Part shown: piece by piece, positions 32,555 to 40,260 of the stretch
How the letters are laid out: each line of letters starts with the position of its first letter
Numbering within the stretch: position 1 is the first letter of the stretch
Origin: Lachnospiraceae bacterium
Lineage (GTDB): Bacteria > Bacillota > Clostridia > Lachnospirales > Lachnospiraceae
Assembly (NCBI GenBank): GCA_024693225.1
Contig: JAILLI010000054.1
Span: forward strand, 1 to 43,127
Direction: 5' to 3'
Length of the DNA stretch: 43,127 nucleotides
Made by a program: the position numbers and the translations under genes
The notes under the pieces: model-generated
Told to the model about the DNA's origin: nothing
What the model saw: the letters and a program-made list of their open reading frames with translations, nothing else
Databases searched by the model: none

Positions 32555-32561
32555 CCGGGAA

Positions 32562-32779
32562 CTGTCCCCGGACAAACTTTAATACCCTCAAAACCTTTAA
32601 AAGAGGCAAACTTATAAACCTTGTAACCCTAAAACGGCTGCAAGGTTTTTTTATGTCCTAGGGAAGGTGTGAGCCTTGGAAATATAACAGATTCTACGAA
32701 GAGAATCCGGACGTACAGAACGTGTGACGGTATAAAAGGTTTTGCCTCATGCCGTATATTTCATATTGTCCGGGGACAG
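32562..32779. repeat. Segment bounded by a 14-bp perfect inverted repeat
   Basis: CTGTCCCCGGACAA (32562-32575) and TTGTCCGGGGACAG (32766-32779). Confidence 0.85.
32616..32651 (+). terminator. Probable intrinsic terminator after guaA
   Basis: AAACCTTG ... CAAGGTTTTTTT. Confidence 0.65.
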
Positions 32780-32805
32780 GAACAAACATCACCGCCCAAA
32801 GATCC

Positions 32806-32917
32806 GCTGACGGCAAGGGCTTATACTGCTGACGGCAAGGGTTTATACTGCTGATGACAAGGGCTTATAACCGCTTATTGCAAGGGCTTATAACCGCATA
32901 TGGCAAGGGCTTCGGGG
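32806..32917 (+). repeat. Tandem direct repeat, about five 22-23 nt units (iteron-like)
   Basis: gctgacggcaagggcttatact / gctgacggcaagggtttatact / gctgatgacaagggcttataac / cgcttattgcaagggcttataac / cgcatatggcaagggcttcggg. Confidence 0.9.
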
Positions 32918-32984
32918 TCTTGTTTTTTTTATTGTTTTGAGTTATATTATTACGAGCAATACTGTTTTAAATTCTTTTTCTGTG

Positions 32985-33047
32985 GCAGATCGATTTCCGG
33001 CAGTTATTATCTTGCCGGGTAAATCCATAATTTACAGTAATATCTGC
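32985..33047. ncRNA. Candidate three-way-junction RNA element
   Basis: P1 GCAGAT/ATCTGC, P2 CCGGCA/TGCCGG, P3 GTAAAT/ATTTAC, all perfect 6-bp stems nested in 63 nt. Confidence 0.35.
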
Positions 33048-33138
33048 GTCTGTATTTTATAGTTAAAAGCGTAAGGATACTCGGACACGACGATCAAATG
33101 GTCTTAAGTGTATCTATTTAGTGCCTTCACACAGGTCT

Positions 33139-33573
33139 GACACTCGTTTTAGAAGATGGGTTGTAACGTAGTGTATAAATCTCCCCGAAAGAAAAAAATA
33201 ATAATTCATAGACACTTGTAAGGGTATTTGAGAAGTGACGGAGTGTCGAAATAAAGCAATTGAGGCAACCGAAGACACTTCTAATGGCATAGGGATATGA
33301 TAGAAGTGTCATAAAGAAGAGGGTAAGACACTCCTAAAGCACTGGGAATACGATGGGAGTGTCATAAAGAAGAGGGTAAGACACTCCTAAAGCACTGGGA
33401 ATACGATGGGAGTGTCATAAAGAAGAGCGTAAGACACTCCTAAAGCACTGGGAATACGATGGGAGTGTCATAAGGAAAACGTAAGACACTCCTAATGAGC
33501 TTGGAATATGAGGGAAGTGTCATAAGGAAAACGTAAGACACTCCTAAAGCGCTTGGAATATGAGGGAAGTGTC
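33139..33573. repeat. Array of eight 37-nt hairpin units, the last six in 52-53 nt tandem period
   Basis: 37-nt units at 33139, 33211, 33274, 33327, 33380, 33433, 33485, 33537, of the form GACACT(T/C)C...GAAGTGTC or GGAGTGTC; conserved 15-16 nt linker ataaaGaagAg(g/c)gtaa. Confidence 0.93.
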
Positions 33574-33671
33574 ATAAAGAAAAACTGAGATCATAATAAT
33601 GCCGGCGGCGGGCGGAAACCGCCTCCGGGTGGTTAATTCAACCTGACACGGACAACAAGGAGGTAGAGAAA

Positions 33672-34469
33672 ATTTTAGATTATTCAAAGGAATTAAATCA
33701 GCAGATCAAATGGCTTGATCAACTCATATCTACTACGAGGACAGCCTTGAGTGCTATCAGGATCGATGATGACAGACCTGTCAAAAGCTCAAAAAGAAAG
33801 AACGGTTATCAGTATTATTTACAGAGAGCAGATGGAAAACTTGAATATATCAAGGTAAAGGATATAGACAGAGTTAAAAGGATAGTTCAAAGAGACTATT
33901 ATAATTCACTTTTAGAAAATCTGTTAACTGTGCGAAACAGGGTTGAAAGGTTTACTGAGATTTATGATATCGAATCTATTACGAGGGCTTATGATAATCT
34001 GAGCCAGGCCAGAAAGGCTTTGGTCAATCCGATCATCCCTTCTGACGAGAACTATATTATGGAGTGGCGGGAACATAATAAAGGCGGTTGCAATCCATAT
34101 CCCGAGGAAGGGAAATATCAGACCCAAAGAGGCGAATTGGTCCGATCAAAATCAGAAAAAATATTAGCGGATCTGTTTGAAAAATTTGGTATCCCTTACG
34201 TCTACGAACCTCAAATAACAGCAGTAAATGGGAAAAACCTGTATCCTGATTTTGCATTGCTTAATGTAAGGACAAGAAGAACTGTCTACTGGGAACATTT
34301 CGGGCTCATATCAGATGGAGAATATGCCCAAAATGCATTGACAAAGATCAATCTGTATGAGCAGATGGGGATTGAGGTTGGAAAAAATCTGATCATCACT
34401 ATGGAGTCCGAGAGGATGTTGCTGGATATTAAACGAATAGAAAAGAAAATCAGGGAGTATCTGTTATGA
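33672..34469 (+). CDS. PD-(D/E)XK-nuclease-like protein of unknown function (annotated start 33747 TTG; ATT at 33672 proposed)
   Basis: Order of conserved-looking residues SEKILADLFEKFGIPYVYEP...LYPDFALLN...TVYWEHFG resembles PD-(D/E)XK; AAGGAGGT at 33657-33664 lies 7 nt before in-frame ATT TTA GAT TAT TCA. Confidence 0.62.
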   Translation: MLDYSKELNQQIKWLDQLISTTRTALSAIRIDDDRPVKSSKRKNGYQYYLQRADGKLEYIKVKDIDRVKRIVQRDYYNSLLENLLTVRNRVERFTEIYDIESITRAYDNLSQARKALVNPIIPSDENYIMEWREHNKGGCNPYPEEGKYQTQRGELVRSKSEKILADLFEKFGIPYVYEPQITAVNGKNLYPDFALLNVRTRRTVYWEHFGLISDGEYAQNALTKINLYEQMGIEVGKNLIITMESERMLLDIKRIEKKIREYLL

Positions 34470-36747: not shown

Positions 36748-38625
36748 ATGAAACATATGACAGGAAAAACCGCGATAAGTACGATGATATCTGTTGCCAT
36801 GCTTGCTGTGTCACTCATGCTGTCGGGCTGTAATGTCGATCCTGATCAGGTTGCACAGCTTGTCGGATCAATGGCCCAAAACCCGGAGAAGACACAGGAG
36901 ATCGTGCAGGAGGCTGCAGATGCTGAAAAGGCAGAAACAGGAGCTTCGACCGATAATGCCGAAACGGCGGAAACAGGAGCTTCGACCGATAATGCCGGAC
37001 AGTCCGCTGACGCGGCTTCACAGAGCGAAGATGCCGATGATACCCCCTCGCTGCCGGACAGGGACATATATATCCTCTGTACCGCGGATATCCACTGCGG
37101 CGTGAATCAGGGATTCGGCTACGCCGGACTTAAACAGATACTGGACAGCCTCAGGATGAGAGGCTGCGATGTCATACTTGTGGATGACGGGGATCATGTT
37201 CAGGGCGAACTTATAGGTACCGTTTCAAAAGGTGAAGCGATCATGCCGATAATGAACGCACTCGGATATGAGATCGCGATCCCGGGTAATCATGAATTCG
37301 ATTACGGAATAGATGAGTTCATCAAATACACCGAGCTGGCTGATTTTCCCTATATCAGCTGTAACTTTACCAAAAACGGTGAGCCTGTTTTTGCACCCTA
37401 TCTTATAAAAGAGGCCGGAGGTAAAAGATTTGCTTTTGTCGGAGTGACGACGCCGGAGACGCTGACATCGGTATCACCGAAGACGTTTCAGGATAAGGAC
37501 GGCAATTATGTATACGGATTTATGCAGGGAGACGGCAGCCAGCTTTATCAGGCCGTTCAGGATGCCGTTGATGCGGCAGTCGCCGAGGGCGTTGATTATG
37601 TATATCTGATGGCACATGTCGGAAATGAAGAAGATTCGGCACCGTACAACTGCATGGATATCATAGCCAATACGACAGGCATAGATGTCGTTTTGGACGG
37701 CCACAGTCATGACCTCGATCAGATGGTGTTAAAGAACAGGGATGGTAAGGAGATTCCGAGGATCGCATGCGGATACAAGTTCAGCGGGATAGGATACAGT
37801 CATATCAAAGCTGAAGACGGCTCGGCAGATACGGGGATCTGGGTATGGGAAAACTCGGAGAGTGTCCCTGCACTTTTCAATATCCATAATGAAGTATCGG
37901 ATGATATTAGCAGTGTCCAGGCGGAGATAGAAGAAAAGACAAAACAGGTCATCGCCAGGACCGATGTCTCTCTTACGATCAATGATCCTAAACAAAAAGA
38001 TGAAAAGGGTGTTCCGGTCCGTATGGTCAGAAACCGCGAGACAAACATGGGTGATCTCTGTGCTGATGCGGTACGGATCCGCACCGGTGCCGATATAGGC
38101 GTGGTAAACGGAGGAGGCGTAAGAGCGGATATAGGAAAGGGCGATATCACATACGGAGATATCATAAGTGTTCATCCGTTTGGCAATAAGAACGTTGTGA
38201 TAGAGGTTACCGGCCGGCAGATAGAAGATGCGCTCGAATGGAGCTGCAGATCGGTCCCGGATGAGGAAGGAGGATTCCTGCAGGTTTCCGGTATGAGCTT
38301 CAAGGTTGATACAAGTGTTAAGAGCGGATGCACCGTGGATGAGAACGGCATGATGACCGGAATTAAGGGAGAGCGCCGTGTTTCGGATATCATGATCGGT
38401 GATAAACCGCTGGATCCGGATTCAAAATACACGGTAGCCGGAAATGAATTTATACTGATGAGAAACGGAAACGGATATTCATCGTTTGACGGTGCCACGG
38501 TCGTGGTCGAAGATGCAGGACTTGATAACCAGCTTCTTATCGACTATATAGTGGAAGACCTCGGCGGCACGATCGGTGAGGATTATTCGGATCCGTACGG
38601 CCAGGGAAGGATCGGGATCAAGTGA
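36748..38625 (+). CDS. Lipoprotein 5'-nucleotidase/UshA-like metallophosphoesterase
   Basis: Lipobox LMLSGC; DIYILCTADIHCGV, GDHVQGE, PGNHEFDYG, LDGHSHD; GGGVRADIGKGDITYGDIISVHPFGN. Confidence 0.93.
   Translation: MKHMTGKTAISTMISVAMLAVSLMLSGCNVDPDQVAQLVGSMAQNPEKTQEIVQEAADAEKAETGASTDNAETAETGASTDNAGQSADAASQSEDADDTPSLPDRDIYILCTADIHCGVNQGFGYAGLKQILDSLRMRGCDVILVDDGDHVQGELIGTVSKGEAIMPIMNALGYEIAIPGNHEFDYGIDEFIKYTELADFPYISCNFTKNGEPVFAPYLIKEAGGKRFAFVGVTTPETLTSVSPKTFQDKDGNYVYGFMQGDGSQLYQAVQDAVDAAVAEGVDYVYLMAHVGNEEDSAPYNCMDIIANTTGIDVVLDGHSHDLDQMVLKNRDGKEIPRIACGYKFSGIGYSHIKAEDGSADTGIWVWENSESVPALFNIHNEVSDDISSVQAEIEEKTKQVIARTDVSLTINDPKQKDEKGVPVRMVRNRETNMGDLCADAVRIRTGADIGVVNGGGVRADIGKGDITYGDIISVHPFGNKNVVIEVTGRQIEDALEWSCRSVPDEEGGFLQVSGMSFKVDTSVKSGCTVDENGMMTGIKGERRVSDIMIGDKPLDPDSKYTVAGNEFILMRNGNGYSSFDGATVVVEDAGLDNQLLIDYIVEDLGGTIGEDYSDPYGQGRIGIK
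36931..37002 (+). repeat. 36-nt tandem duplication within the nucleotidase gene
   Basis: gcagaaacaggagcttcgaccgataatgcc / gcggaaacaggagcttcgaccgataatgcc (AETGASTDNA twice). Confidence 0.85.
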
Positions 38626-39305
38626 ACATAGCATCGATAATAGACAGCATTGACAATTATTTATGGGGATGGCCGCTGATAGCCGTGCTGTTCGGCACAC
38701 ATCTTTTTATGACCTTCAGGACAGGGTTTATACAAAAGGAGATCTTTAAGGCAATAAAGCTGTCCGTCACAAAAGACAAAGACGCACCGGGAGATGTTTC
38801 TCAGTTCGGTGCGCTTACAACAGCACTTTCCTCTACGATCGGAACGGGAAATATCGTTGGAGTCGGAACGGCGATCGCCATCGGAGGTCCCGGGGCTGTT
38901 CTCTGGATGTGGCTGACGGGTATTTTCGGGATCGCCACCAAGTATGCGGAGACTCTCATAGCCGTGAAATACCGTGTTAAGAGTGAAGACGGATCGATGC
39001 TCGGGGGAGCCATGTACGCTCTGGACAGGGGACTCAATCTGAAGTGGCTGGGGATAGCATTTGCGCTGCTGGCCTCGATATGCGGTCTCGGCATAGGAAG
39101 CTCCGTACCGGCAAATGCCGTGGCATCAAATGTAAGGCAGAGTTTTGCCACCGATAAAGCATCAGGATGGATACTGACCATCATAACCGCCGTTATCCTC
39201 TGCGTACTGGTCGGTCTTGTTATCATAGGCGGCGTAAAGGCCATAACAAAAGTATCAGAAAAACTCGTGCCGTTCATGGCGGCTTTTTATGTGCAAGTAC
39301 GATAG
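38622..39305 (+). pseudogene. 3'-truncated AGCS (sodium:alanine/glycine) symporter
   Basis: FGALTTALSSTIGTGNIVGVGTAIAIGGPGAVLWMWLTGIFGIATKYAE typical AGCS N-half; homology stops at VPFMAAFYV followed by QVR*; AGCS proteins normally have several more TM helices. Confidence 0.8.
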
Positions 39306-39509: not shown

Positions 39510-39655
39510 TATAATGACGTAGAAACGATCTGACTATGGATCAAGAGGCGAAACAACGCGCAAATTAACACGTAAATATACTTGCGCATGTACTTTTTGT
39601 GTCGTATTATAAGAATAGGTTTATTGTAGAACAATTTATGGAAAGAGGTGTGAAT

Positions 39656-39916
39656 ATGCCAAGCATAATGCCAATTTCAGATTTGAGGAACTATACAGAG
39701 GTCCTAAAAGAAGTTGATAATAAAAAACGTGTTTATCTTACCAGAAACGGTCATGGAGCATATGCAATCATGACGGTTGCTGAAGCTGATGAATTGGATA
39801 GGATCAGAGCTGCTAGGGCACTCGCTGCTGATTTGAGAAGAGCTGAAGAGCGGGCAAATCGAGAAGGGTGGATTGATGCGGATGACTTTGACCGCGAAAT
39901 GGGGATAATAGATTGA
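39656..39916 (+). CDS. Phd/YefM-family antitoxin
   Basis: MPSIMPISDLRNYTEVLKEVDNKKRVYLTRNGHGAYAIMTVAEADEL; SD aaagaggtg. Confidence 0.88.
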   Translation: MPSIMPISDLRNYTEVLKEVDNKKRVYLTRNGHGAYAIMTVAEADELDRIRAARALAADLRRAEERANREGWIDADDFDREMGIID

Positions 39917-40260
39917 AAAAATTAAAGTACTCACCAGATTATGTTGAAAAAATGAGGGAACTTAAAAAGTATCTTGATTTCCAATTTGGTGGGGATGTCA
40001 GGAAAAAGGTTATCAAAGAGATAGGAAGCAGTGTCCGATCATTACGAGAGAATGAACAGATAGGTATTTCTGTTCGTGGAATGTACGGTGTAGATACAGA
40101 TTGCTTGTGCATTTTTGTTGCAAAGAACTACGTGTTTTACCGGATTGAACAGGATAGTATTTATGTTGTGAACATCTATAACGAACGTGAAGATTTCATG
40201 ATGGACCTGTTTGGAATATCCGGACGCACGCAGGAGTCTATAGATTATTGGGGTGAGTGA
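39913..40260 (+). CDS. RelE/ParE-family toxin
   Basis: YSPDYVEKMRELKKYLDFQFG...; short basic ORF overlapping the antitoxin by 4 nt. Confidence 0.82.
   Translation: MKKLKYSPDYVEKMRELKKYLDFQFGGDVRKKVIKEIGSSVRSLRENEQIGISVRGMYGVDTDCLCIFVAKNYVFYRIEQDSIYVVNIYNEREDFMMDLFGISGRTQESIDYWGE

What the first reader, a model, noticed from the sequence alone, without database searches (positions are those of the whole stretch)
33076..33573. Eight-unit array of 37-nt hairpins with compensatory stem changes
Each unit is 37 nt with complementary ends. Stem position 7 is T-A in unit 33274 (GACACTTCTA/TAGAAGTGTC) but C-G in units 33327, 33380 and 33433 (GACACTCCTA/TGGGAGTGTC), a paired double change that keeps the stem. 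Units 33485 and 33537 have C.A there, which is G.U on the minus strand only. The last six units run at 53,53,53,52,52 nt with a conserved linker; the 5' units are degenerate and more widely spaced, and 33076-33114 may be a ninth. The period is not a multiple of 3, so this is not coding. Structure seems selected, either as RNA or as single-stranded DNA. It is unlike CRISPR and no Y1/RAYT transposase is in the window. Function is unknown.
Basis: seen in the sequence. Interest (0 to 1): 0.74.

Follow-up and report, generated by a model that had tools for sequence, protein, structure and literature searches.

The report
Phased DNA-site array of a nuclease
The "hairpin array" is a row of nine paired protein-binding sites in double-stranded DNA, spaced by whole turns of the helix in front of an undescribed nuclease gene, and many related genes in gut and rumen bacteria carry such a row with a different recognition word.

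Summary
The array is real: nine inverted repeats at 33076-33573, not eight. It is not an RNA or single-stranded-DNA hairpin array. It is the 5' half of a cassette: sigma70-like promoter, leader hairpin, array, then a gene (33672-34469, probable AUU start) for a 265-aa protein with an N-terminal coiled-coil/three-strand sheet and a PD-(D/E)XK nuclease domain. Homologues are multi-copy in Lachnospiraceae and other Clostridia. Of 108 with 700 bp upstream, 75 carry such an array at a threshold no shuffled (0/108) or far-upstream (0/58) control reaches. Word and loop sequence differ between loci. Unit spacings fall on whole helical turns (42, 52.5, 63, 73.5, 84 bp; period 10.5, phase about 0; p<=4e-13 with <50%-identical representatives), also within single arrays with mixed spacing. 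Within-unit covariation is absent (2618 Watson-Crick cells observed, 2693 expected). Half-site words follow the protein's predicted beta-sheet (partial Mantel p=0.002), not its nuclease domain. Best reading: a phased array of double-stranded-DNA sites bound cooperatively by dimers of the adjacent nuclease, probably to hold it in check in cis (autorepression or sequestration). Binding, cleavage and purpose are untested. I found no prior description.

The parts
32920..32925 (+). -35-like TTGTTT of the putative promoter of the cassette
   Evidence: TTGTTT-N17-TATATT ends 128 bp before the array; about 30 homologous loci have TTGACA/TTTACT-type -35 boxes, N17 and TATATT at a similar place
32943..32948 (+). 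-10-like TATATT
32996..33019 (+). leader hairpin TCCGGCAG-TTATTATC-TTGCCGGG, followed by TAAATCCAT
   Evidence: hairpins with different but complementary stems, mostly followed by A(T)TCCC, at a similar distance from the -10 in many homologous loci
33076..33112 (.). array unit 1 (degenerate): half-sites ATACTC / ACACTT
   Evidence: 63 bp before unit 2
33139..33175 (.). array unit 2: half-sites ACACTC / ACACTA
   Evidence: 72 bp before unit 3
33211..33247 (.). array unit 3: half-sites ACACTT / ACACTC
   Evidence: 63 bp before unit 4
33274..33310 (.). array unit 4: half-sites ACACTT / ACACTT
33327..33363 (.). array unit 5: half-sites ACACTC / ACACTC
33380..33416 (.). array unit 6: identical to unit 5
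33433..33469 (.). array unit 7: identical to unit 5
33485..33521 (.). array unit 8: half-sites ACACTC / ACACTT
33537..33573 (.). array unit 9: half-sites ACACTC / ACACTT
33602..33630 (+). GC-rich hairpin between array and gene, no T-run; role unknown
33657..33663 (+). Shine-Dalgarno AAGGAGG
33672..34469 (+). nuclease gene with probable AUU start (33672-33674); 265-aa protein: coiled-coil helix, three-strand beta-sheet and long helix (putative DNA-binding part), then PD-(D/E)XK domain
   Evidence: invariant E166, D197, E212-H213; residue numbers count from base 33660; AlphaFold2 pLDDT 92; C-terminal match to PADLOC PDC-S68; non-ATG start with 8-nt Shine-Dalgarno spacing, shared by about ten close homologues

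Best explanation
The array is a cis-acting set of nine double-stranded-DNA binding sites for the protein encoded right after it. Each unit is a pair of inverted half-sites (ACACTY / RAGTGT) at fixed separation, fitting one protein dimer. Units lie whole helical turns apart, so that bound dimers sit on one face of the DNA and can touch. The protein reads the half-site with an N-terminal three-strand beta-sheet on a coiled coil and carries a PD-(D/E)XK nuclease domain. Because the array lies between promoter and gene, and the gene has a weak start codon, I infer that cooperative occupancy represses and sequesters the potentially harmful nuclease until something disturbs it, as in a one-gene accessory or defence cassette. 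Shown by computation: array, phasing, lack of pairing selection, association with the gene, half-site to beta-sheet correlation. Inferred: binding by the protein, dimer, repression or sequestration, nuclease activity, defence role.
For: Phasing: gap R=0.86 near period 10.5 with phase about 0 over 467 gaps; unique gaps per locus p~1e-50; with representatives below 50% protein identity p=4e-13. Mixed-spacing arrays jump mostly by 9-11 or 20-22 bp. Association: 75/108 upstream regions versus 0/58 far upstream, 0/108 shuffled, 10/117 downstream. Independent half-sites: no within-unit covariation. Protein as reader: closest homologues (63-73% identical) keep the same ACACT word while loops diverge; Mantel r=0.32, p=0.0005; partial Mantel significant at p=0.002 for beta-sheet residues 36-64 and only marginal for the next helix (p=0.04), not for the other regions. 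Promoter before the array. The array-bearing relatives in other orders have the full-length protein; the weaker matches, mostly to the C-terminal part, lack clear arrays.
Against: No binding, expression or cleavage data. Some loci carry same-word arrays downstream of the gene too (L009, L053, L057, L062, L114, L145), which a simple promoter-operator model does not need. About a fifth of homologues score as array-less at the looser threshold, some certainly with degenerate arrays. The leader hairpin with compensating stems suggests that RNA also matters somewhere in the leader. The DNA-binding part has no convincing solved relative. Half-site correlation is modest (r about 0.2-0.3).
Confidence: 0.66

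Rival explanations
1. Type III toxin-antitoxin-like system: the array is transcribed as tandem antitoxin RNA repeats that bind and inhibit the nuclease.
For: Order promoter, repeats, GC-rich hairpin, nuclease gene matches type III loci; repeat sequence differs per locus.
Against: Spacing quantised at 10.5 bp; no pairing covariation and no G.U/A.C asymmetry; PD-(D/E)XK domain instead of the ToxN endoribonuclease fold; some same-word arrays lie downstream of the gene.
Confidence: 0.08
2. The array is a nuclease target: the protein cuts its own sites or identical sites on incoming DNA, as a selfish or exclusion element, rather than only binding them.
For: Inverted half-sites around a spacer of about 17-25 bp are the layout expected for a dimeric nuclease cutting between half-sites; arrays can flank the gene on both sides; the cassette sits in a variable region after guaA.
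Against: Nine intact sites persist in the chromosome next to the gene; no methyltransferase or other protecting gene was seen among the neighbours scanned; phasing between units is not required for independent cutting.
Confidence: 0.15
3. The phased array serves chromosome or element maintenance (centromere- or origin-like), with the nuclease as a partner protein.
For: Phased tandem inverted sites resemble plasmid partition sites and iterons.
Against: Chromosomal multi-copy cassettes, each with its own word; no partition ATPase or replication protein among the neighbours scanned.
Confidence: 0.05
4. Ordinary satellite DNA made by slippage, next to the gene by chance.
For: Units 5-7 are identical recent copies.
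Against: Recurs beside the same gene family with unrelated sequences, and spacings are whole helical turns.
Confidence: 0.02

Closest known systems
Type III toxin-antitoxin (ToxIN; e.g. PMC8860590)
   Same: Promoter, tandem-repeat array, hairpin, then a nuclease gene; repeat sequence specific to each locus
   Different: Array behaves as phased double-stranded DNA sites, not RNA repeats; nuclease is PD-(D/E)XK with its own putative DNA-binding part
Controller-protein autoregulation of restriction-modification genes (C boxes; e.g. PMC8053105)
   Same: Symmetrical operator sites limiting expression of a nuclease gene
Iteron and centromere arrays (e.g. F plasmid sopC, parC; from memory)
   Same: Tandem, helically phased inverted or direct sites bound cooperatively in cis
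   Different: Chromosomal, before a nuclease gene, with no replication or partition proteins seen next to it
PADLOC candidate PDC-S68/S69
   Same: Homologous C-terminal PD-(D/E)XK domain (E 2e-27 to PDC-S68)
   Different: PDC-S68 profiles are about 1200 positions long and similar plasmid hits are annotated mostly as AAA-family ATPases; this is a 265-aa protein with a different N-terminus and an array
REP/RAYT and CRISPR arrays
   Same: Short palindromic repeats
   Different: No transposase; no variable spacers; linker repeats with the unit and spacing is phase-locked

Membership tests
Type III toxin-antitoxin | Toxin of the ToxN/AbiQ endoribonuclease fold | tested here: not met
   Model is PD-(D/E)XK with a coiled-coil/beta-sheet N-terminus; no Pfam or NCBIfam match
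Type III toxin-antitoxin | Repeats act as folded RNA | tested here: not met
   No covariation; helical phasing; no Rfam match
CRISPR array | Identical repeats separated by unique spacers | tested here: not met
   Loops and linkers repeat along with the unit, or all diverge except the arms
REP/RAYT | Y1 RAYT transposase and scattered palindromes | tested here: not met
   Array is unique in the genome; the neighbouring genes scanned are not Y1 transposases
PD-(D/E)XK nuclease superfamily | Core fold with conserved acidic residues | tested here: met
   Invariant E166, PDF (D197), EH (E212-H213) in 61 sequences; weak fold matches to DrdV, Bax1 and MunI; PADLOC domain match
PADLOC PDC-S68 defence candidate | Whole-protein match | tested here: not met
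   Only the last about 125 positions of a 1221-position profile match
Autoregulatory operator array | Sites between promoter and gene, bound by the gene's own product | tested here: inconclusive
   Position met; product as reader supported by correlation only; binding not testable here
Anti-phage defence system | Protection against phage | not testable with these tools
   Only indirect hints: variable genomic site, accessory distribution, related domain in defence candidates

The most novel reading that the evidence does not exclude
An undescribed, widespread class of one-gene systems in Clostridia: a sequence-specific PD-(D/E)XK nuclease kept inactive by cooperative binding to its own helically phased site array (a DNA 'antitoxin'), with each of several paralogues in a genome using its own private DNA word.
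Probability: 0.35. Interest if true: 0.9.

Novelty: new variant of a known kind. Interest (0 to 1): 0.74.

Why it matters
It links an unannotated, abundant gut and rumen nuclease family to a cis DNA array whose geometry (whole helical turns, rigid half-site separation) predicts its mechanism. Dozens of natural protein/half-site pairs are available at once, so the recognition code of a possibly new DNA-binding domain can be read from sequence and tested directly. If the array holds the nuclease in check, it would be a toxin-antitoxin-like logic in which the antitoxin is a piece of DNA.

Tried and rejected
RNA/ssDNA hairpin selection: rejected by the unbiased covariation and G.T/A.C tests. An earlier version seemed to show covariation and a G.T excess, but it chose columns by their pairing and was biased. 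AP2/arm-type integrase domain for the N-terminus: considered from the secondary structure, but the fold search gave no such relative. Rfam: no match. Viral-contig scans gave no answer, so phage-borne copies were not examined. Plasmid and phage collections: mostly matches to the nuclease domain alone, one nearly full-length match in an unannotated phage record from human faeces. Literature searches found no description of this array or gene pair; only openly licensed papers were searched.

Full report
What is there. Scanning for inverted arm pairs gives nine units, starting at 33076, 33139, 33211, 33274, 33327, 33380, 33433, 33485 and 33537, with spacings 63, 72, 63, 53, 53, 53, 52, 52. The array is a single-copy feature of this draft genome and its DNA is not found in 60 related genomes.

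The partner. Directly downstream is an open frame without a usable ATG, GTG or TTG start. A strong Shine-Dalgarno (33657-33663) lies eight bases before ATT (33672). About ten homologues of the same subfamily have ATT, ATA or ATC at this spacing, so an AUH start is likely. The protein has no Pfam, NCBIfam or PDB sequence match. Its last about 125 residues match the C-terminus of PADLOC's PDC-S68 (E 2e-27; all 61 aligned family members). AlphaFold2 (pLDDT 92) gives a coiled-coil helix, three strands and a long helix, followed by a PD-(D/E)XK core. Invariant residues include those of RSKSE, PDF and EHxG.

The association. Homologues occur in 17 of 37 genomes of the genus, 93 of 392 of the order, often six or more per genome, and in other clostridial orders; the genome collection returned at least 580. 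Upstream of them lie tandem arrays with unrelated sequences. With one scoring rule on 700-bp stretches, 75 of 108 upstream regions pass, against 0 of 108 shuffled, 0 of 58 regions 1.7-2.4 kb upstream and 10 of 117 downstream. Most of the downstream hits are true arrays, several with the same word as the upstream one.

Phasing. Unit-to-unit distances cluster at about 32, 42, 52.5, 63, 73.5, 84, 95 and 105 bp. The best period is 10.5-10.7 bp; at 10.5 bp the phase is close to zero, i.e. whole turns. Using one value per gap class and only representatives below 90, 60 or 50% protein identity, Rayleigh p is 2e-37, 5e-29 and 4e-13. Within arrays of mixed spacing, jumps are mostly one or two turns. 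The detection imposes no period. This is the signature of proteins sharing one face of B-DNA and is not expected of RNA hairpins.

No pairing selection. Across 72 arrays, with duplicate units removed and no selection of columns, Watson-Crick pairs within units number 2618 against 2693 expected when 3' letters are dealt out among units of the same array. G.T is 1073/1037 and A.C 796/782, observed over expected. Conservation is confined to arms of 6-8 bp in diverged arrays: in L024, L025 and L026, whose proteins are 63-73% identical to the window's, only ACACT/AGTGT survives while loops diverge at fixed length.

Who reads it. Half-site profiles resemble each other more when the proteins do (Mantel r=0.32, p=0.0005). 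When protein regions compete, only the predicted beta-sheet (residues 36-64) clearly predicts the half-site (partial r=0.21, p=0.002); the next helix is marginal (p=0.04), and coiled coil, middle part and nuclease domain are not significant. The strongest column is residue 46 at the end of the first strand. This supports, but does not prove, that the encoded protein binds the array.

Context. A TTGACA-N17-TATATT-type promoter lies roughly 80-170 bp before the array in about 30 loci, followed by a hairpin with changing but complementary stems, mostly followed by A(T)TCCC. This suggests that the leader, and probably the array as well, is transcribed. In the window the cassette follows guaA, as in L025 and L026. 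In sister species of the window's genus the DNA after guaA differs from that of the window, so this is a variable, accessory site.

Mechanism. I take the array to be a cooperative operator and sink for the nuclease itself. Downstream same-word arrays suggest that the purpose is not promoter occlusion alone; holding the protein locally, or looping, would fit as well. Nuclease activity, dimerisation, repression and biological purpose are inferred.

Limits. Many genomes are metagenome assemblies; the window's own is 85% complete. Weak or degenerate arrays are undercounted. Viral contigs could not be searched. Literature searches covered openly licensed papers only.

Noticed in passing
window 32804-32912: A second, short-period (22-23 bp) direct-repeat array (CCGCTGATGGCAAGGGCTTATAA x4.8) lies just before the promoter; short-period arrays also occur upstream in several homologous loci (L003, L004, L010, L019, L023).
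   Followed up: partly
window 32996-33019 and leaders of homologous loci: A leader hairpin with compensating stem differences, mostly followed by A(T)TCCC, at a similar distance after the -10 box; it is not in Rfam and its role is unexplained.
   Followed up: partly
window 33672 and L019, L024, L025, L026, L027, L029, L031, L036, L044: Probable AUU/AUA/AUC start codons at exactly eight bases from a strong Shine-Dalgarno in the window's subfamily.
   Followed up: partly
L009, L053, L057, L062, L114, L145: Arrays with the same word occur on both sides of the nuclease gene.
   Followed up: partly
window 32555-33000, downstream of guaA: The region after guaA is variable between sister species; inverted repeat CTGTCCCCGGACAA at 32562-32584 and 32757-32779.
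   Followed up: partly
window 39599-40260: Likely Phd/ParE-type toxin-antitoxin pair.
   Followed up: no
window 38622-39305: Sodium:alanine symporter match covers only the first part of the family profile; the gene looks truncated.
   Followed up: no
G000:C27:3742-3776 (L134): The only other ACACTY-N23-RAGTGT in the genome; about one is expected by chance.
   Followed up: no
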